27,587 bases of DNA from a virus, in the IMG/VR virus record IMGVR_UViG_3300009034_002034, positions 1 through 27,587 of that record; one strand, written 5' to 3'. The translations under genes and the position numbers were made by a program. Under the pieces are notes generated by a model. The model saw only the letters and a program-made list of their open reading frames with translations. It made no database searches and was not told the DNA's origin. Positions 19,844-27,427 of this stretch are shown here, in pieces; the stretch's first letter is position 1; each line of letters begins with the position of its first letter.

Positions 19844-21217
19844 ATGCATAAAATAACTAGTATAACAAAAGAGCAGGAAAATCAAATTCCAATTTTTATA
19901 GAAAAGTGGGTAAATATTCCTTTGGAGAGGGTGAATAAGAAGATAGCGAAAGAATCAATTTTTAAGTTATATGATAAAATGGGAATGGAAAACATTCCCT
20001 TGGTTATATATGGGGATTCTCCTTTATCCACTGTTATTATGGCAGCTATGCTTTTTGATTCTCAACTATATTCTCAACTAGATTCTCAACTAAATTCTCA
20101 ACTATATTCTCAACTAGATTCTCAACTAAATTCTCAACTATATTCTCAACTACGTTCTCAACTAGGTTCTCAACTATATTCTCAACTAGATTCTCAACTA
20201 AATTCTCAACTAGATTCTCAACTAAATTCTCAACTATATTCTCAACTAGATTCTCAACTATATTCTCAACTAGATTCTCAACTAGATTCTCAACTAGATT
20301 CTCAACTAAATTCTCAACTATATTCTCAACTAGATTCTCAACTACGTTCTCAACTATATTCTCAACTAGATTCTCAACTAAATTCTCAACTACGTTCTCA
20401 ACTAGATTCTCAACTAAATTCTCAACTATATTCTCAACTAGATTCTCAACTACGTTCTCAACTATATTCTCAACTAGATTCTCAACTAGATTCTCAACTA
20501 AATTCTCAACTACGTTCTCAACTAAATTCTCAACTATATTCTCAACTAGATTCTCAACTAAAGAAAATAAACAATGATTGGTATATGAGTTTGTGGTGGT
20601 TAAATTGGTGCGGTTATTATGATTTTGCTAAATATTTAGGAGTAAAATTTGATGAAGAAGTTTTCACTTTATTTATGGATTTTCAAAAGGAAATCCATTT
20701 TATAATTCCTTATAAAAAAATAGTTTTTATTTCAGAAAAACCCATAGCAATCCATTGGAAAGATAAGTTATTGCATCACGAGAAAGGCCCTGCTATAGAA
20801 TATAAAGATGGATATGTGGTTTGGTCTTTAAATGGAGTAAGGGTAACTAAAGAGTTAGTGAAAACCCCAGCAAATAAACTTGATCCAAAACTACTACTAA
20901 AAGAGAAGAATGCAGAAATAAGAAGGGAGATAGTTAGAAAAATTGGAATAGAAAGGATTTGTCAAAAACTAAAAACAAAGACTTTAGACTTATTACCAGA
21001 GCAAATATTTAATGGATTAAAAACTGATTATGAGCTACTCCAGTTAGAAATTCCAGAAATGAACCGGCCAGCGACCTATCTAAAAATGCTTAATCCATCC
21101 ATTGGCACATATCATTTGGAGGGAGTTCCTCCCGATATTGAAACATGCCAGCAGGCGATTAATTGGAGAGCCTATCAAGATAAAAATAAATTATGGAATC
21201 CTAATCAATTAACTTGA
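19844..21217 (+). CDS. DUF6745-like protein with 42 xSQL tetrapeptide repeats
   Basis: A 457-residue protein in three parts. An N-terminal helical segment (1-71) ends in MLFD. Then 42 contiguous xSQL repeats cover residues 72-239, in which x is only Asp, Tyr, Asn, Arg or Gly. The remaining 218 residues hold a tryptophan-rich block (WYMSLWWLNWCGYYDF) and a domain I recognise as DUF6745-like: IHWKDKLLHHEKGPAIEYKD, VVWSLNGVRV and the helix AEIRREIVRKIG. No enzymatic function is established that I know of. Its own promoter and the following small gene suggest a two-gene unit. The repeats could form a solenoid or an elongated spacer. Confidence 0.75.
   Translation: MHKITSITKEQENQIPIFIEKWVNIPLERVNKKIAKESIFKLYDKMGMENIPLVIYGDSPLSTVIMAAMLFDSQLYSQLDSQLNSQLYSQLDSQLNSQLYSQLRSQLGSQLYSQLDSQLNSQLDSQLNSQLYSQLDSQLYSQLDSQLDSQLDSQLNSQLYSQLDSQLRSQLYSQLDSQLNSQLRSQLDSQLNSQLYSQLDSQLRSQLYSQLDSQLDSQLNSQLRSQLNSQLYSQLDSQLKKINNDWYMSLWWLNWCGYYDFAKYLGVKFDEEVFTLFMDFQKEIHFIIPYKKIVFISEKPIAIHWKDKLLHHEKGPAIEYKDGYVVWSLNGVRVTKELVKTPANKLDPKLLLKEKNAEIRREIVRKIGIERICQKLKTKTLDLLPEQIFNGLKTDYELLQLEIPEMNRPATYLKMLNPSIGTYHLEGVPPDIETCQQAINWRAYQDKNKLWNPNQLT
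20057..20560 (+). repeat. 42 tandem 12-bp repeats (xxTTCTCAACTA)
   Basis: The 504 bases are 42 perfect-length copies of a 12-mer. In every copy positions 3-12 are TTCTCAACTA, and only the first two bases vary (GA, TA, AA, CG or GG). The order shows higher-order blocks such as Tyr-Asp-Asn (36 bp) that recur. The array is in frame with the DUF6745-like gene. Confidence 0.97.
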
Positions 21218-21668: not shown

Positions 21669-21786
21669 AGGCGTTTTTCTCTACTTTAAATGCCCTTATT
21701 TCAATCTTTTTAATCAAACCCATACCTAGCTATTCAAAATAAATTTTAAGGGCTTATTTTTACCCTTTTAATTCGTAATTATATAC

Positions 21787-21815
21787 TTGACGTATTCAGA
21801 AAAATAGGTTATAAT
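21787..21815 (+). promoter_or_regulatory. Promoter of transposase A
   Basis: TTGACG (21787-21792), a 17-base spacer and TATAAT (21810-21815), with AGGT just before the -10 box. The -35 box lies inside the presumed terminal repeat, so the end sequence doubles as a promoter. The 68 bases that follow form a leader before the transposase RBS AAGGGGG. Confidence 0.75.
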
Positions 21816-21883
21816 ATAAAAGACAGTTAAAGCGGAAGCAAACGAGAACATTCCTAATATATCTGATAAAAAGGGGGAAAGCA

Positions 21884-22810
21884 ATGGAAAACATAGCATT
21901 TGGGAACCCAATTTTTTATGACGAACAAAAAGCAAGGGAGTATCTGGAAGATTTATTTTGGGGTGAGGATAAATCTATATGTCCTCATTGTGGATTGATG
22001 GGTGAAGCTTATCTAATGAAAAGCAAATCAATTCGTAATGGTTTATGGAAGTGTAAAGGTTGCAAAAAACCTTTCACCGTCACTATTGGAACAATATTTC
22101 AAGGCAGTCATCTACCATTAACTAAATGGTTTCAAGCAATTTTTCTTATGTGTTCCAGTAAAAAAGGCATCTCTGCAAAACAATTAGAGAGAAATCTTGA
22201 TATTACCTATAAAACCGCTTGGTTCTTGGCCCATAGAATTAGAGAGATGTTCAAAGAAGGAGAGTTATTTAAGCTTATAGGAGATAAAGATTCTGTTATA
22301 GAAGCTGATGAAACTTTCTGGGGAAGTAAGAAAAAGAAAATACGTGGTCAAAGGGGTTGGTGGCATAAAGAGAAAATATTTTGTATGGTAAACCGGGAAA
22401 CAAAAGAAAAACGATCATTTCATGTCCAGAATGTGGATGGTAGAACACTAAAACCTATAATGAAAAAACATATAAACAAGAAATCCCGCATTATAACTGA
22501 CGATATGGGAGGATACAGTAAATTAGATGAATTATTCAAAGAACACGATATTATTTGTCATAGCAAAAAGGAATACAAAAAAGGAGAGGATATCCATACT
22601 AATACAGTAGAAGGATCATTTAGCATCCTTAAACGAGGATTAAATGGTATATTCCAATGGGTAAGCCCACATCATTTATGGAGATATTTAGTCCAGTTTG
22701 ATTTTTTATATTCTACTTGTAAAATGACTGATACAGAAAGATTCATCGAGTCATTAAAAAGGTCAGGAGGAAAAAGATTATTTTTTAAAGAACTTGTAAC
22801 TTTTGGATAA
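21884..22810 (+). CDS. IS1595-family (ISXO2-like) transposase A
   Basis: A 308-residue transposase. The N-terminal zinc ribbon has Cys33/Cys36 (CPHC) and Cys57/Cys60 (CKGC). A helix-turn-helix (KKGISAKQLERNLDITYKTA) follows. The ISXO2-like catalytic core has IEADETFWG (Asp142), IITDDMGGYSKL (Asp206 or Asp207) and HTNTVEGSFS (His238, Asn240, Glu243), the DD(N/E) arrangement of this family. Length is normal, and all motifs are intact, so the enzyme may be active. It is roughly half identical to transposase B by eye, so the two are separate arrivals and not duplicates. AAGGGGGAAAG gives the RBS. Confidence 0.92.
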   Translation: MENIAFGNPIFYDEQKAREYLEDLFWGEDKSICPHCGLMGEAYLMKSKSIRNGLWKCKGCKKPFTVTIGTIFQGSHLPLTKWFQAIFLMCSSKKGISAKQLERNLDITYKTAWFLAHRIREMFKEGELFKLIGDKDSVIEADETFWGSKKKKIRGQRGWWHKEKIFCMVNRETKEKRSFHVQNVDGRTLKPIMKKHINKKSRIITDDMGGYSKLDELFKEHDIICHSKKEYKKGEDIHTNTVEGSFSILKRGLNGIFQWVSPHHLWRYLVQFDFLYSTCKMTDTERFIESLKRSGGKRLFFKELVTFG

Positions 22811-23002: not shown

Positions 23003-23034
23003 TTTATAAACGCGATTATATATTTAACATACCC
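23003..23034 (+). repeat. Left inverted repeat of element B
   Basis: TTTATAAA plus CGCGATTATATA and TTTAACATACCC. It matches the right end in inverted orientation with two differences (T for C and A for G). The -35-like TTGACA of the right end is TTAACA here, so this end is a weaker promoter. Confidence 0.8.
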
Positions 23035-23054
23035 GCGTTTAAGGAGGGAAACCC

Positions 23055-23297
23055 GTGAAAAAGGAAAATAAAAATTCCAAGCCGTTTGTTTGTTTATATG
23101 GTGTTGTAAGTTTCATCAGAAAGAAAACATCTGATGATCTCAGTCATGAACCTGCCATAAAAGAAATAATCCTAGCTATCAAAGATATTTCAGTAAAACA
23201 CAATCTTAATACTTTTGTCGTGGCGAAGATGTTACCAGAACTATCAGATTTCTTTATGAAAAGATCGAAAATCGACGATTCGCTAGAATGGAGATAA
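23055..23297 (+). CDS. Hypothetical passenger protein (80 residues)
   Basis: The start is GTG 23055, 6 bases after a near-perfect AAGGAGGG, directly inside the left end of element B. The protein is helical with one hydrophobic stretch (PFVCLYGVVSFI) and a C-terminal charged tail. No family is recognised. Its location between the terminal repeat and the SLATT gene makes it a passenger of the element, perhaps a regulator or partner of the SLATT protein, but nothing in the sequence proves it. Confidence 0.6.
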   Translation: MKKENKNSKPFVCLYGVVSFIRKKTSDDLSHEPAIKEIILAIKDISVKHNLNTFVVAKMLPELSDFFMKRSKIDDSLEWR

Positions 23298-23302
23298 TTT
23301 AC

Positions 23303-23446
23303 TCAATAATAATCATTGATAAGTTTAAGAAATTCGAACATATCGTCTAAACCTTCTCTTGTATTTCTAAAGGCAAAAACAATTCTTTCGATGGATATAT
23401 TATTTTCCCTTGGATTGTCGCTTGATTTATCTTCTTGAGAAACCAC
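23303..23446 (-). CDS. Possible antisense small ORF (47 residues)
   Basis: The minus strand is open across the gap between the 80-residue gene and the SLATT gene, and reads like a protein (NNISIERIVFAFRNTREGLD, ending in NDYY). The only starts are GTG 23446 or an upstream TTG, and no RBS is visible. It could be a gene remnant or a convergent small gene. It also covers the space where the SLATT promoter would be expected. Confidence 0.3.
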   Translation of the reverse strand: MVSQEDKSSDNPRENNISIERIVFAFRNTREGLDDMFEFLKLINDYY

Positions 23447-23474
23447 CGAAGCCAAAGAAATAATAAAGGAAAAG

Positions 23475-24020
23475 ATGGAAGAGTTAAAAAAAATAAAAGA
23501 TAACTTATTGCTTGATATTCGCCGATCTATACGATATCACAACAGACGCCGCATGTTCTTCGAGAGACTGCATGTAATATTCAGCACTTTTATATTGTTA
23601 TCAGGAATGACAGCTTTTACAACACTACTTTCAGAAATGAAGGATGGCAAGGAATATGCCATATACGCATCTTTCATAGTAGCCTTATTCTCGGCAGTTG
23701 ATATTGTAGTGGGAACTTCAAAAAAAGCACGTCTCTATCTGGATTTATCTCGTCGCTTCATAAATCTTGAGAAGTCAATGATAATAAATAACGAGATATC
23801 TGAAGAAACAATTAACAAATTTCATGCGAAAAGATTAGATATAGAATCCGAAGAACCTCCAGTTCTAAAAGTACTAGATTCTATTTGTCACAATGAACTT
23901 GCAAGATCAATGGGAAGCGAAAAGAAGGAATATGTAAAAATTCGTTTCTACCAGAGATTGTTTGCACAGCTATTTGACTTAAGGGAGCATACGATAAGGA
24001 GGGAATCATCAGCTCAATAA
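23475..24020 (+). CDS. SLATT-type two-helix membrane protein
   Basis: A 181-residue protein with the SLATT profile (SMODS and SLOG-associating 2TM effector). A basic N-terminal helix (RRSIRYHNRRRMFFERL) leads into TM1 (about 31-52) and TM2 (about 61-80, ending AVDIVVGTSKKAR). A helical cytosolic domain follows with LDLSRRFINLEKSM, ESEEPPVLKVLDSICHNELARS and a C-terminal amphipathic helix. SLATT proteins are proposed pore-forming effectors of bacterial conflict systems, usually next to nucleotide-sensing or nucleotide-synthesising genes. None of those genes is adjacent here; instead it is a passenger in an IS1595-type element. AAGGA lies 4 bases before ATG 23475. Confidence 0.8.
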   Translation: MEELKKIKDNLLLDIRRSIRYHNRRRMFFERLHVIFSTFILLSGMTAFTTLLSEMKDGKEYAIYASFIVALFSAVDIVVGTSKKARLYLDLSRRFINLEKSMIINNEISEETINKFHAKRLDIESEEPPVLKVLDSICHNELARSMGSEKKEYVKIRFYQRLFAQLFDLREHTIRRESSAQ

Positions 24021-24021
24021 A

Positions 24022-24174
24022 TTAGGGTTTAGATGTCTTTTTATTGAACTGGCCTGATTTATTGGTAATTATTGGCTTATGTTGTTTTGGTGGAGTGTTT
24101 AACATACTGGTAACAGTAGAAACAAAGTCAGCTTTAGGATAGGGTTCTTTTTTATTTTCTTTTTTATTTTTCAT
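24022..24174 (-). CDS. Small basic protein downstream of the structured element
   Basis: A 50-residue minus-strand protein starting MKNKKENKKEPYPKADFVST and ending NKSGQFNKKTSKP, very basic and proline-containing. AAAGGA lies 8 bases before the start. The 107-nt branched structure lies about 30 bases upstream, so it may be the leader of this gene. It converges with the SLATT gene (stop codons 1 base apart). Function unknown. Confidence 0.5.
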   Translation of the reverse strand: MKNKKENKKEPYPKADFVSTVTSMLNTPPKQHKPIITNKSGQFNKKTSKP

Positions 24175-24203
24175 AATTTGTTCCTTTGGTAATTTGGAAG
24201 AAA

Positions 24204-24310
24204 GGCGGTAAGGAGTTTCTGACTATGAATCAGTCGTGGGTTTTCCGCTTGCTGATTTCGCAGGTTTAATCCCGCTACTTATCAACAGTCAGGCACCCCT
24301 CCTTACCGCC
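24204..24310 (-). ncRNA. 107-nt branched structured element, unidentified
   Basis: A perfect 12-bp outer stem joins GGCGGTAAGGAG (24204-24215) with CTCCTTACCGCC (24299-24310). After an internal loop, CTGACT (24219-24224) pairs with AGTCAG (24287-24292). On the minus strand two further hairpins fit inside: GCGGG-ATTAAA-CCTGC and AATCAG...CTGATT. The first contains a G:U pair that becomes an A:C mismatch on the plus strand, so the minus strand is the better RNA. It lies between the transposase B stop and the RBS of the small basic gene. It could be a leader RNA, an antisense or transposon-derived RNA, or a DNA hairpin recognised in transposition. No known RNA family is recognised. Confidence 0.6.
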
Positions 24311-24355
24311 AACCATCAGGTTATAATATTGGTATTAGATAAGTCAATAATTAAT

Positions 24356-25273
24356 TTAAACAGCCATAGCTTGATAGTAAGTAAGTCTTTTACCTTCAGA
24401 CCATTTTAAGGCTATATTAAATCTTTCAAAATCACTAATTTTACGATGACTATAACGAAAATCAAACTCGGTAATATAACGCTGTAAATGGAATTTCCAA
24501 ACATGTTGATAAATACCAGTCAATCCACGTTTAAGAATAGAGAAAAATCCTTCAATGGTATTAGTATGGATATCCTTACCCCTAACATATTCGCCTTTGC
24601 TGTGCCTTACTACGTCATGGCTATCAAAATGAGTATCAAGTTTGCTATAAGCACCCATGTCGTCCGTCATTATTTTAGTATTCTCATATACTTGGCCTTT
24701 AAGGATCGGTTTAAGCGTATCGCCATCCACTCTATCGACGTGAAAAGACCTTACATAACCCTTTCTTTCCACCAAAGAAAAGATTTTCTCTTTATGCATA
24801 TAACCTCTTGCTCCTTTAGGAAGATTCTTTTTACTACCAAAGAAAGTTTCATCTGCTTCGATAACTTTACCAGAACCGCCAAGCTTACCGGAATCTTGAG
24901 AAATCTTCATCCCTTCCCGTATTCTATGGCACATAAACCAAGCGGATTTATAGGTTATATCAAGCATTCTATGGATTTGGTGGGCAGAAATGCCTTTTTT
25001 AGAGGAACACATAAGATGGGTAGCCAAAAGCCATTTATGGATAGGGATATGGGAACGCTCATAAACGGTTCCAATAGTAACAGTAAAAGGCTTACGGCAA
25101 TGACCGCATTTATAAAGACCTTTACGGGTAGATGCGCCTTTAAGTTTATAAGCTTTATCCATACCGCCACAATGGGGACAAGTTATGCCGTCTGACCATC
25201 TAATTGATTCAAGGTATTGTAAAGCTAGTTCTTCATTGTGGAAGATTGGGTTTGTTACTGAAAAGTTTTTCAT
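24356..25273 (-). CDS. IS1595-family (ISXO2-like) transposase B
   Basis: A 305-residue transposase with the same architecture as transposase A: zinc ribbon CPHC...CGHC, HTH KKGISAHQIHRMLDITYKSA, and catalytic blocks IEADETFFGSKK, IMTDDMGAYSKL and HTNTIEGFFSILKRGL. All motifs are intact. AGGAGG lies 8 bases before the start, and the promoter is inside the right terminal repeat. It is the only transposase inside element B, so it should mobilise the passenger genes. Confidence 0.92.
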   Translation of the reverse strand: MKNFSVTNPIFHNEELALQYLESIRWSDGITCPHCGGMDKAYKLKGASTRKGLYKCGHCRKPFTVTIGTVYERSHIPIHKWLLATHLMCSSKKGISAHQIHRMLDITYKSAWFMCHRIREGMKISQDSGKLGGSGKVIEADETFFGSKKNLPKGARGYMHKEKIFSLVERKGYVRSFHVDRVDGDTLKPILKGQVYENTKIMTDDMGAYSKLDTHFDSHDVVRHSKGEYVRGKDIHTNTIEGFFSILKRGLTGIYQHVWKFHLQRYITEFDFRYSHRKISDFERFNIALKWSEGKRLTYYQAMAV

Positions 25274-25307
25274 TGACTTACCTCCTGTTAAGTTATCATC
25301 TACTTAT

Positions 25308-25336
25308 AGTATAACCTAAAAGGATGGGTATGTCAA
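25308..25336 (-). promoter_or_regulatory. Promoter of transposase B
   Basis: On the minus strand TTGACA (25336-25331) and TATACT (25313-25308) are spaced by 17 bases, with AGGT just before the -10 box. The -35 box lies within the right inverted repeat. It reads inward to the transposase. Confidence 0.75.
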
Positions 25337-25357
25337 GTATATAATCGCGTTTATAAA
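25326..25357 (-). repeat. Right inverted repeat of element B
   Basis: Read on the minus strand from 25357: TTTATAAA, CGCGATTATATA, CTTGACATACCC. It pairs with the left end at 23003-23034 and shares ATTATATACTTGAC with the left part of unit A. Confidence 0.8.
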
Positions 25358-26451: not shown

Positions 26452-26459
26452 ATTTTTAC

Positions 26460-26488
26460 TTTACTTTTTCACCAGAAAAGGTTATAAT
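26460..26488 (+). promoter_or_regulatory. Promoter of the beta-barrel gene
   Basis: TTTACT (26460-26465), a 17-base spacer and TATAAT (26483-26488), again with AGGT before the -10 box. It is 46 bases before the start codon, which has AAAGGAGA as RBS. The second inverted repeat lies directly upstream of the -35 box. Confidence 0.75.
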
Positions 26489-26533: not shown

Positions 26534-27427
26534 ATGAAGAAGATTATTTGCAGTATTGTTGTTTTATTTAGTTTGCTTGGAAAATCTTATGGAACTGATG
26601 AGATTATAATCAATGTTGAAGCTCACGAATGGTTTAGTCAGGGAAATGATTCAATGAAAGTTTCTTTTTCCGATTATTGGGGAGATTCGGCAACGTCTGA
26701 CCATAGATTTGATAATCTCGACATCATGGTAAATTCCATAGAAATGGGTGCTAATCTTTCTTCCAATATTTCCCTAGAAGGATCATTTGGATTTGGTTAC
26801 ATCAATAAGGAAGAGGCAATTCAAGAAACGGATATGATGGGAAAAAGAACAGATGAAGTAGGGGTTTCAGGAGGAACTGTTTCGGTTGAATTTAATACCT
26901 ACTATAAGATATTATCATGGAATAAATCCTATATTAAAGGTTTTGGGGGATATCAATACTATTATAAGGAATTGAACATGGAAAGTGGTCGATTTAAAAC
27001 CTCTGGTTTTCCTGATTGGTATCCTTCATATCCTGATTCCTTTATGGGATATGAATTCATTCAACATACCGTTCCCCTTGGTGTAAAGGCAAGAATTTCT
27101 CTTGACAAGAAGATTAAACCATATCTTCACGATCTCTCCCTGGTGGGATCGATGTCTACAGGATATTCTTTTCTGTCTGGGGAAGACATATTAATATCCA
27201 CAAAAGAGAAATTCAGAGCCAATGGATATACTTTATCGGGAGATATTGGAATCAAATACCAACCCATTAAGACTATATCTATAGAGGCAGGTTATAAATT
27301 TTACAGCTTCAAATCAGAATCAGGACAGGGTGTGATTCAAGATTATTGGGGAATGAAGAGTGATGCTGATTATGAAATAAAATCCTTTTTTAAAGGACCG
27401 TATGTTTCTTTATCTGGAAATTTTTAA
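26534..27427 (+). CDS. Outer-membrane beta-barrel protein
   Basis: A 297-residue secreted protein. The N-terminal signal peptide (MKKIICSIVVLFSLLGKSYG) has a cleavage site near residue 20. The rest alternates polar and aromatic residues in amphipathic strands (ANLSSNISLEGSFGFGYI, YIKGFGGYQYYYKELN, TLSGDIGIKYQPI, ISIEAGYKFYSF). It ends in Phe after VSLSGN, the terminal aromatic recognised by the BAM complex. It belongs to the general 10-12 strand OMP class; no more precise family can be given. It is a host-type gene, which shows that the mobile region borders chromosomal-type DNA of a diderm bacterium, or that the element carries a surface protein. Confidence 0.8.
   Translation: MKKIICSIVVLFSLLGKSYGTDEIIINVEAHEWFSQGNDSMKVSFSDYWGDSATSDHRFDNLDIMVNSIEMGANLSSNISLEGSFGFGYINKEEAIQETDMMGKRTDEVGVSGGTVSVEFNTYYKILSWNKSYIKGFGGYQYYYKELNMESGRFKTSGFPDWYPSYPDSFMGYEFIQHTVPLGVKARISLDKKIKPYLHDLSLVGSMSTGYSFLSGEDILISTKEKFRANGYTLSGDIGIKYQPIKTISIEAGYKFYSFKSESGQGVIQDYWGMKSDADYEIKSFFKGPYVSLSGNF

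What the first reader, a model, noticed from the sequence alone, without database searches (positions are those of the whole stretch)
24204..24310. Unrecognised 107-nt branched structure between transposase and small gene
A perfect 12-bp closing stem, a second 6-bp stem and two inner hairpins form a multi-branched fold. One inner stem has a G:U pair that is viable only on the minus strand, so it is likely RNA. It matches no riboswitch or tRNA that I know. It may be a conserved transposon-linked RNA.
Basis: seen in the sequence. Interest (0 to 1): 0.65.

Follow-up and report, generated by a model that had tools for sequence, protein, structure and literature searches.

The report
Structured RNA inside an IS1595 transposon
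The folded 107-base sequence is real and is cargo of a jumping gene sitting in an AT-rich virus genome; one half of it looks like part of a transfer RNA, but no relatives were found, so whether it is a worn-out tRNA-like RNA or something new stays open.

Summary
The structure is real: a perfect 12-bp closing stem, fold z = -6.9 (+ strand) and -8.1 (- strand), and the highest G+C of any 107-nt stretch in the record (51% against 31%).

The element lies inside an intact 2339-bp IS1595 (ISXO2-like) transposon, 23011-25349, with 24-bp inverted ends and an 8-bp target duplication (TTTATAAA), between the transposase and passenger genes.

No homologue was found, so covariation could not be tested. Its minus-strand 5' half resembles the 5' half of a class II tRNA: best match in the window, 1 of 5000 shuffles scores as well. 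In related transposons, five elements with exact 8-bp duplications, and a sixth bounded by TIRs, carry tRNA or irregular tRNA-like genes as cargo. I therefore read it as a transposon-borne, decayed or irregular class II tRNA-like RNA (confidence about 0.4). The acceptor pairing, anticodon loop, CCA and T loop of a working tRNA are absent. A structured leader of the 50-aa gene just downstream is the main rival.

The parts
23003..23010 (.). left copy of the 8-bp target-site duplication TTTATAAA
   Evidence: exact 8/8 duplication flanking the ends; sequence
23011..23034 (+). left terminal inverted repeat CGCGATTATATATTTAACATACCC
   Evidence: 94% complementary arms (I5); second-best hit in the whole window of an end profile built from 43 other transposons
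23055..23297 (+). 80-aa passenger ORF, unknown
   Evidence: ORF list; no Pfam/NCBIfam/PADLOC match
23475..24020 (+). 181-aa SLATT-like membrane protein, passenger gene
   Evidence: weak NCBIfam SLATT_4 (E 7e-4, below cut-off); phrog_11791 E 1e-49, unknown function; relatives in viral contigs
24022..24174 (-). 50-aa ORF with LNTPPKQHK motif, directly downstream of the 107-nt element on the same strand
   Evidence: similar small ORFs in at least 9 other IS1595-family loci
24204..24310 (-). the 107-nt structured element (strand inferred)
24260..24302 (-). stretch aligning to class II tRNA positions 1-44 (acceptor 5' strand, D arm, anticodon arm)
   Evidence: nhmmer 8.3 bits, E 0.057 for the whole window, 1 of 5000 shuffles
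24320..24347 (-). promoter-like TTGACT-16-TATAAC ending 9 nt before the element
   Evidence: read by eye; NOT listed by the consensus scan, which demands T at the end of the second hexamer; weak
24356..25273 (-). IS1595-family (ISXO2-like) DDE transposase with zinc ribbon
   Evidence: Pfam PF12762 E 5e-30, PF12760 E 2.5e-14
25308..25336 (-). transposase promoter-like TTGACA-17-TATACT overlapping the right end
   Evidence: seen in sequence
25326..25349 (-). right terminal inverted repeat (reads CGCGATTATATACTTGACATACCC inward)
   Evidence: best hit in the window of the end profile, 33.5 bits
25350..25357 (.). right copy of the 8-bp target-site duplication TTTATAAA

Best explanation
The element is a passenger of an IS1595-family transposon. 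It most likely encodes a stable RNA on the transposase strand, of class II tRNA ancestry, that has lost tRNA function. Shown: the transposon, its boundaries, and the fold. Supported but not proven: tRNA ancestry of the 5' half. Inferred: transcription from the transposase promoter at the transposon end, or from a weak promoter just upstream of the element. Inferred mechanism: the RNA is kept for its fold, not for decoding, as a stable cap or leader between the transposase transcript and the 50-aa gene, in the way irregular tRNA-like sequences ride on other elements of this transposon group.
For: Transposon: complementary ends, exact 8-bp duplication, and the two ends are the top two hits in the window of an end profile built without the window. 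Structure: z -8.05; G+C maximum of the record. tRNA likeness: a blastn sample of 337 genomes returned two matches at E<=0.001, both tRNA-Tyr genes; a class II tRNA profile, also without those two genes, puts the element first in the window, starting at tRNA position 1 (E 0.057-0.091, next best about 60); 1 of 5000 dinucleotide shuffles scores as high; a class II covariance model also ranks it first (13.1 bits, above the window's true tRNA-His at 11.7). Context: other transposons of the same group carry tRNA or irregular tRNA-like genes between their ends: L005 (two), L031, L034, L040, L152 with 8/8 target duplications, and L028 (two) with TIRs.
Against: The tRNA model was chosen after seeing the blastn hit, so the shuffle figure flatters it; the blastn hits themselves (E 3.5e-4 and 6.7e-4 per genome) are near chance over 337 genomes. 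A third matched piece (L045, E 0.0024) is not in a recognised tRNA. Rfam tRNA does not match even at E 10. Only 4 of 7 acceptor pairs form with the tRNA-like start; the anticodon loop has 6 nt; no CCA; the T-like hairpin lacks the consensus loop. The fold is not a cloverleaf. The element is not clearly similar to the irregular tRNA-likes of the other transposons (best 4 and 8 of 500 shuffles among 18 comparisons). The eight outer pairs of the closing stem are unexplained by tRNA descent.
Confidence: 0.4

Rival explanations
1. A structured 5' leader (cis-regulatory RNA) of the 50-aa gene: transcription starts next to the element on the minus strand, the fold controls translation or read-through into the small gene, and the tRNA likeness is accidental or mimicry.
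For: The element lies directly upstream of the ORF on the same strand, with AAAGGAAC before the ATG; promoter-like hexamers end 9 nt before it.
Against: Nine other transposon loci have a similar small ORF, and none has a structured upstream region (z between -1.3 and +0.8, against -7.7 here). The promoter match is weak and not listed by the scan.
Confidence: 0.25
2. A DNA-level palindrome: a small MITE-like or other hairpin element that inserted between transposase and cargo, with no RNA role.
For: Both strands fold about equally; the two halves are imperfect inverted copies; the outer 12 bp are perfect.
Against: No second copy in the record and none found elsewhere; no target duplication longer than AA flanks it.
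Confidence: 0.2
3. A novel branched RNA family tied to this transposon group, unrelated to tRNA.
For: Strong fold; cargo position.
Against: About 77 related transposon loci hold no match to a covariance model of the element. Their strong folds just after the transposase, where I looked, are mostly simple terminator-type hairpins.
Confidence: 0.1

Closest known systems
IS1595-family transposons with passenger genes (ISXO2-type transposase)
   Same: Transposase domains, inverted ends with an overlapping promoter, 8-bp target duplication, passenger genes. The window element meets all of these.
   Different: Carries a 107-nt structured element; a noncoding passenger of this kind was not found described in the papers I could read.
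Irregular allo-tRNA-like sequences (Mukai et al. 2017, as reviewed in PMC7609411)
   Same: tRNA-like, disrupted stems, unusual acceptor lengths; [quoted passage not shown]
   Different: The window element shows no 8/4 or 9/3 acceptor/T composition, no consensus T loop and no CCA on the minus strand.
Class II tRNA-Tyr of Alphaproteobacteria
   Same: First 14 nt identical to two tRNA-Tyr genes, and the anticodon arm lies at the same offset.
   Different: Second half unrelated; acceptor mismatched; 6-nt anticodon loop.

Membership tests
IS1595-family transposon | DDE transposase with PF12762 and zinc ribbon PF12760 | tested here: met
IS1595-family transposon | terminal inverted repeats shared with the group | tested here: met
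IS1595-family transposon | 8-bp target-site duplication | tested here: met
   TTTATAAA, 8/8; 7-9 bp reported for IS1016-type members in PMC12561309
functional tRNA (class II) | 7-bp acceptor stem with tRNA-like 5' strand | tested here: not met
   GGAGGGG against AAACTCC, 4 of 7 pairs (read from the sequence)
functional tRNA (class II) | 7-nt anticodon loop on a 5-bp stem | tested here: not met
   GCGGG-ATTAAA-CCTGC, 6-nt loop
functional tRNA (class II) | T arm with TTCRA loop | tested here: not met
   CTGA-TTCATAG-TCAG: TTC present near the expected place, A58 missing
functional tRNA (class II) | recognised by tRNA detectors | tested here: not met
   ARAGORN and Rfam negative
class II tRNA ancestry | sequence similarity to class II tRNAs beyond chance | tested here: inconclusive
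   1 of 5000 shuffles, window E 0.057-0.13 with a model chosen post hoc
allo-tRNA | 12-bp acceptor domain as 8/4 or 9/3 | tested here: not met
   no matching T stem beside the closing stem on either strand (read by eye)
conserved structured RNA | covarying pairs in homologues | not testable with these tools
   no homologue found

The most novel reading that the evidence does not exclude
IS1595-family transposons use tRNA-like RNAs, often with changed anticodons or lost anticodon arms, as functional non-coding cargo (for example as mistranslating or decoy RNAs in a toxin-antitoxin or defence setting), and the 107-nt element is a highly derived member.
Probability: 0.15. Interest if true: 0.65.

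Novelty: new variant of a known kind. Interest (0 to 1): 0.36.

Why it matters
If right, it shows a transposon family that repeatedly picks up tRNA genes and lets them drift into irregular structured RNAs, and it gives the 'irregular tRNA' sequences reported from soil metagenomes a concrete vehicle that can be searched for. The element itself, without homologues, remains a single case.

Tried and rejected
Rfam at gathering and relaxed thresholds; arm-pattern and internal-pattern scans of viral and genome contigs; blastn in phages and plasmids, where phage PRD1-type hits cover only 25 nt at E 1; single-sequence covariance model over 82 sources and 299 genomes. Integron attC site: rejected, no RYYYAAC/GTTRRRY core at the ends (read by eye). 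Intrinsic terminator: rejected, loop of 83 nt and no T run. A structure conserved downstream of the transposase across the group: apparent in z-scores, but the sequences I inspected are mostly ordinary short hairpins of terminator type (whose output was partly cut). Plus-strand tRNA reading (GGTAAGGAG...CTCCTTACC-G-CCA with a CTATGAA anticodon-type loop, 9.1 bits): rejected, no T arm beside the acceptor. L007's tRNA-like gene: not counted, because a right transposon end lies before it; L033's tRNA-Gly lies outside its transposon. A search for close relatives of the virus by its recombinase gave none, so no empty site could be compared.

Full report
Observation. The stretch 24204-24310 contains a perfect 12-bp inverted repeat and folds far better than dinucleotide shuffles on both strands: -47.7 kcal/mol, z -6.9 (+) and -49.9 kcal/mol, z -8.05 (-), none of 200 shuffles as good. 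It is the G+C peak of the record: no other 107-nt position tested reaches its 51%, against 31% overall and 28-30% in the 200-nt flanks. This is the usual look of a structured RNA in an AT-rich genome, though it is not proof of one. The likely minus-strand fold is a three-way junction: the closing stem, a long arm that ends in GCGGG-AUUAAA-CCUGC, and a short 3' hairpin. On the plus strand the whole stretch makes a rod. The G:U argument for the strand is therefore weak.

Setting. The record is a 27,588-base virus contig with phage-type replication genes. The 107-nt element is inside a complete transposon. The transposase at 24356-25273 (-) has the IS1595/ISXO2 domains. A 32-bp inverted repeat at 23003-23034 and 25326-25357 resolves into 24-bp ends, 23011-23034 and 25326-25349, plus an exact 8-bp direct repeat TTTATAAA outside, which is palindromic and so had extended the apparent repeat. 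An end profile built from 43 other transposons with exact 8-bp duplications gives these two places as the two best in the whole window (33.5 and 27.9 bits; next 20.7, the left end of a second IS1595 element at 21774). The transposon is 2339 bp. Its cargo is an 80-aa ORF, a SLATT-like gene (weak SLATT_4; phrog_11791), a 50-aa ORF on the transposase strand, and the 107-nt element between that ORF and the transposase.

Relatives. No copy of the element was found: not a second one in the record; none in viral contigs, genome contigs, phages or plasmids; none by a covariance model of the element in the window plus 81 loci or in 299 genomes. The model does recover the element itself (132.7 bits). 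Genome samples with no known positive prove little.

tRNA likeness. A blastn sample of 337 genomes of one class, taken around an alphaproteobacterium, returned two matches at E <= 0.001. Both are tRNA-Tyr genes, aligned from just before the tRNA's first base through the anticodon arm. A profile of 32 class II tRNAs from these genomes ranks the element first in the window (E 0.057; second best 58), and so does a profile without the two genes that raised the idea (E 0.091). One of 5000 dinucleotide shuffles of the element scores as high. A class II covariance model ranks it first as well, 13.1 bits, just above the window's genuine tRNA-His. These tests share the same 44 nt, and the model was picked after the first hit, so they count as one moderate piece of evidence. 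Against a working tRNA: 4 of 7 acceptor pairs, a 6-nt anticodon loop, no CCA, no consensus T loop, and no call by ARAGORN or Rfam. The outer 8 bp of the closing stem are not tRNA-derived.

Other transposons of the group. Inside the bounded elements ARAGORN or the covariance model finds tRNA or tRNA-like genes in L005 (two), L031, L034, L040 and L152 (8/8 duplications) and L028 (two, TIRs only). Several are odd. L028, L034 and L040 have Leu-like bodies (judged from general knowledge of the D arm and discriminator) with NGG (Pro) anticodons. L152 and the second L028 gene keep acceptor and T arms but have no normal middle. The second L005 gene has a 9-bp acceptor with a 4-bp T stem. ARAGORN found the first gene of L005 and those of L031, L034, L040 and L028 independently of my model; four of these genes were then used in building R1, so their high R1 scores are by construction. 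I did not compute a formal enrichment; at ordinary tRNA gene density (general knowledge) about one such gene would be expected in this much cargo. [quoted passage not shown] The window element was not clearly similar to any of these irregular genes.

Mechanism. I commit, at about 0.4, to a transposon-borne RNA of class II tRNA descent that has lost decoding function and is kept as a stable fold. Transcription is inferred: either read-through from the transposase promoter in the transposon end (TTGACA-17-TATACT, seen) or a weak promoter (TTGACT-16-TATAAC) that ends 9 nt before the element (not accepted by the scan). The main rival, at 0.25, is a leader of the 50-aa gene. It fits the position, but nine other loci with a similar small ORF show no folded leader. 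A DNA palindrome without an RNA role (0.2) and an unrelated new RNA family (0.1) follow.

Verdict. Real and structured; ordinary as transposon cargo; unusual as a noncoding passenger; no evidence of conservation. The more interesting lead is the recurrence of odd tRNA genes in this transposon group, which needs a proper census.

Noticed in passing
L028 5242-5327 (-), L034 5624-5708 (-), L040 5597-5682 (-): tRNA genes with Leu-like bodies but NGG (Pro) anticodons, inside IS1595-family transposons of Sphingomonadales and a SAR202 genome; charged with Leu they would misread Pro codons.
   Followed up: partly
L152 2620-2690 (-), L028 5032-5103 (-), L014 5183-5277 (-), L005 4198-4284 (-): Irregular tRNA-like sequences: acceptor and T arm kept, D and anticodon arms altered or replaced by other stems; L014's right transposon end is not on the contig.
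   Followed up: partly
window 24022-24174 (-); also L012, L016, L033, L114, L116, L121, L128, L133, L135: A recurrent small basic protein (about 46-106 aa) with an LxTPPKPH-like motif in or beside IS1595-family transposons; no domain-library search of it was completed beyond NCBIfam and PADLOC for the window copy.
   Followed up: partly
window 21774-22810: A second IS1595-family transposase with a recognisable left end (20.7 bits) but no right end found; the 2339-bp transposon may have inserted into its cargo.
   Followed up: partly
window 19844-21217: 457-aa DUF6745 protein with a long run of SQLxSQL-type repeats.
   Followed up: no
L009 2989-4605: A SLATT-like relative close to a tyrosine-recombinase-like ORF and an IS91-like fragment, judged by eye from the translations.
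   Followed up: no
window 26457-26488 and 21784-21815: Two promoter-like direct repeats, 78% identical, upstream of the transposase at 21884 and of the 297-aa ORF at 26534 (D1).
   Followed up: no
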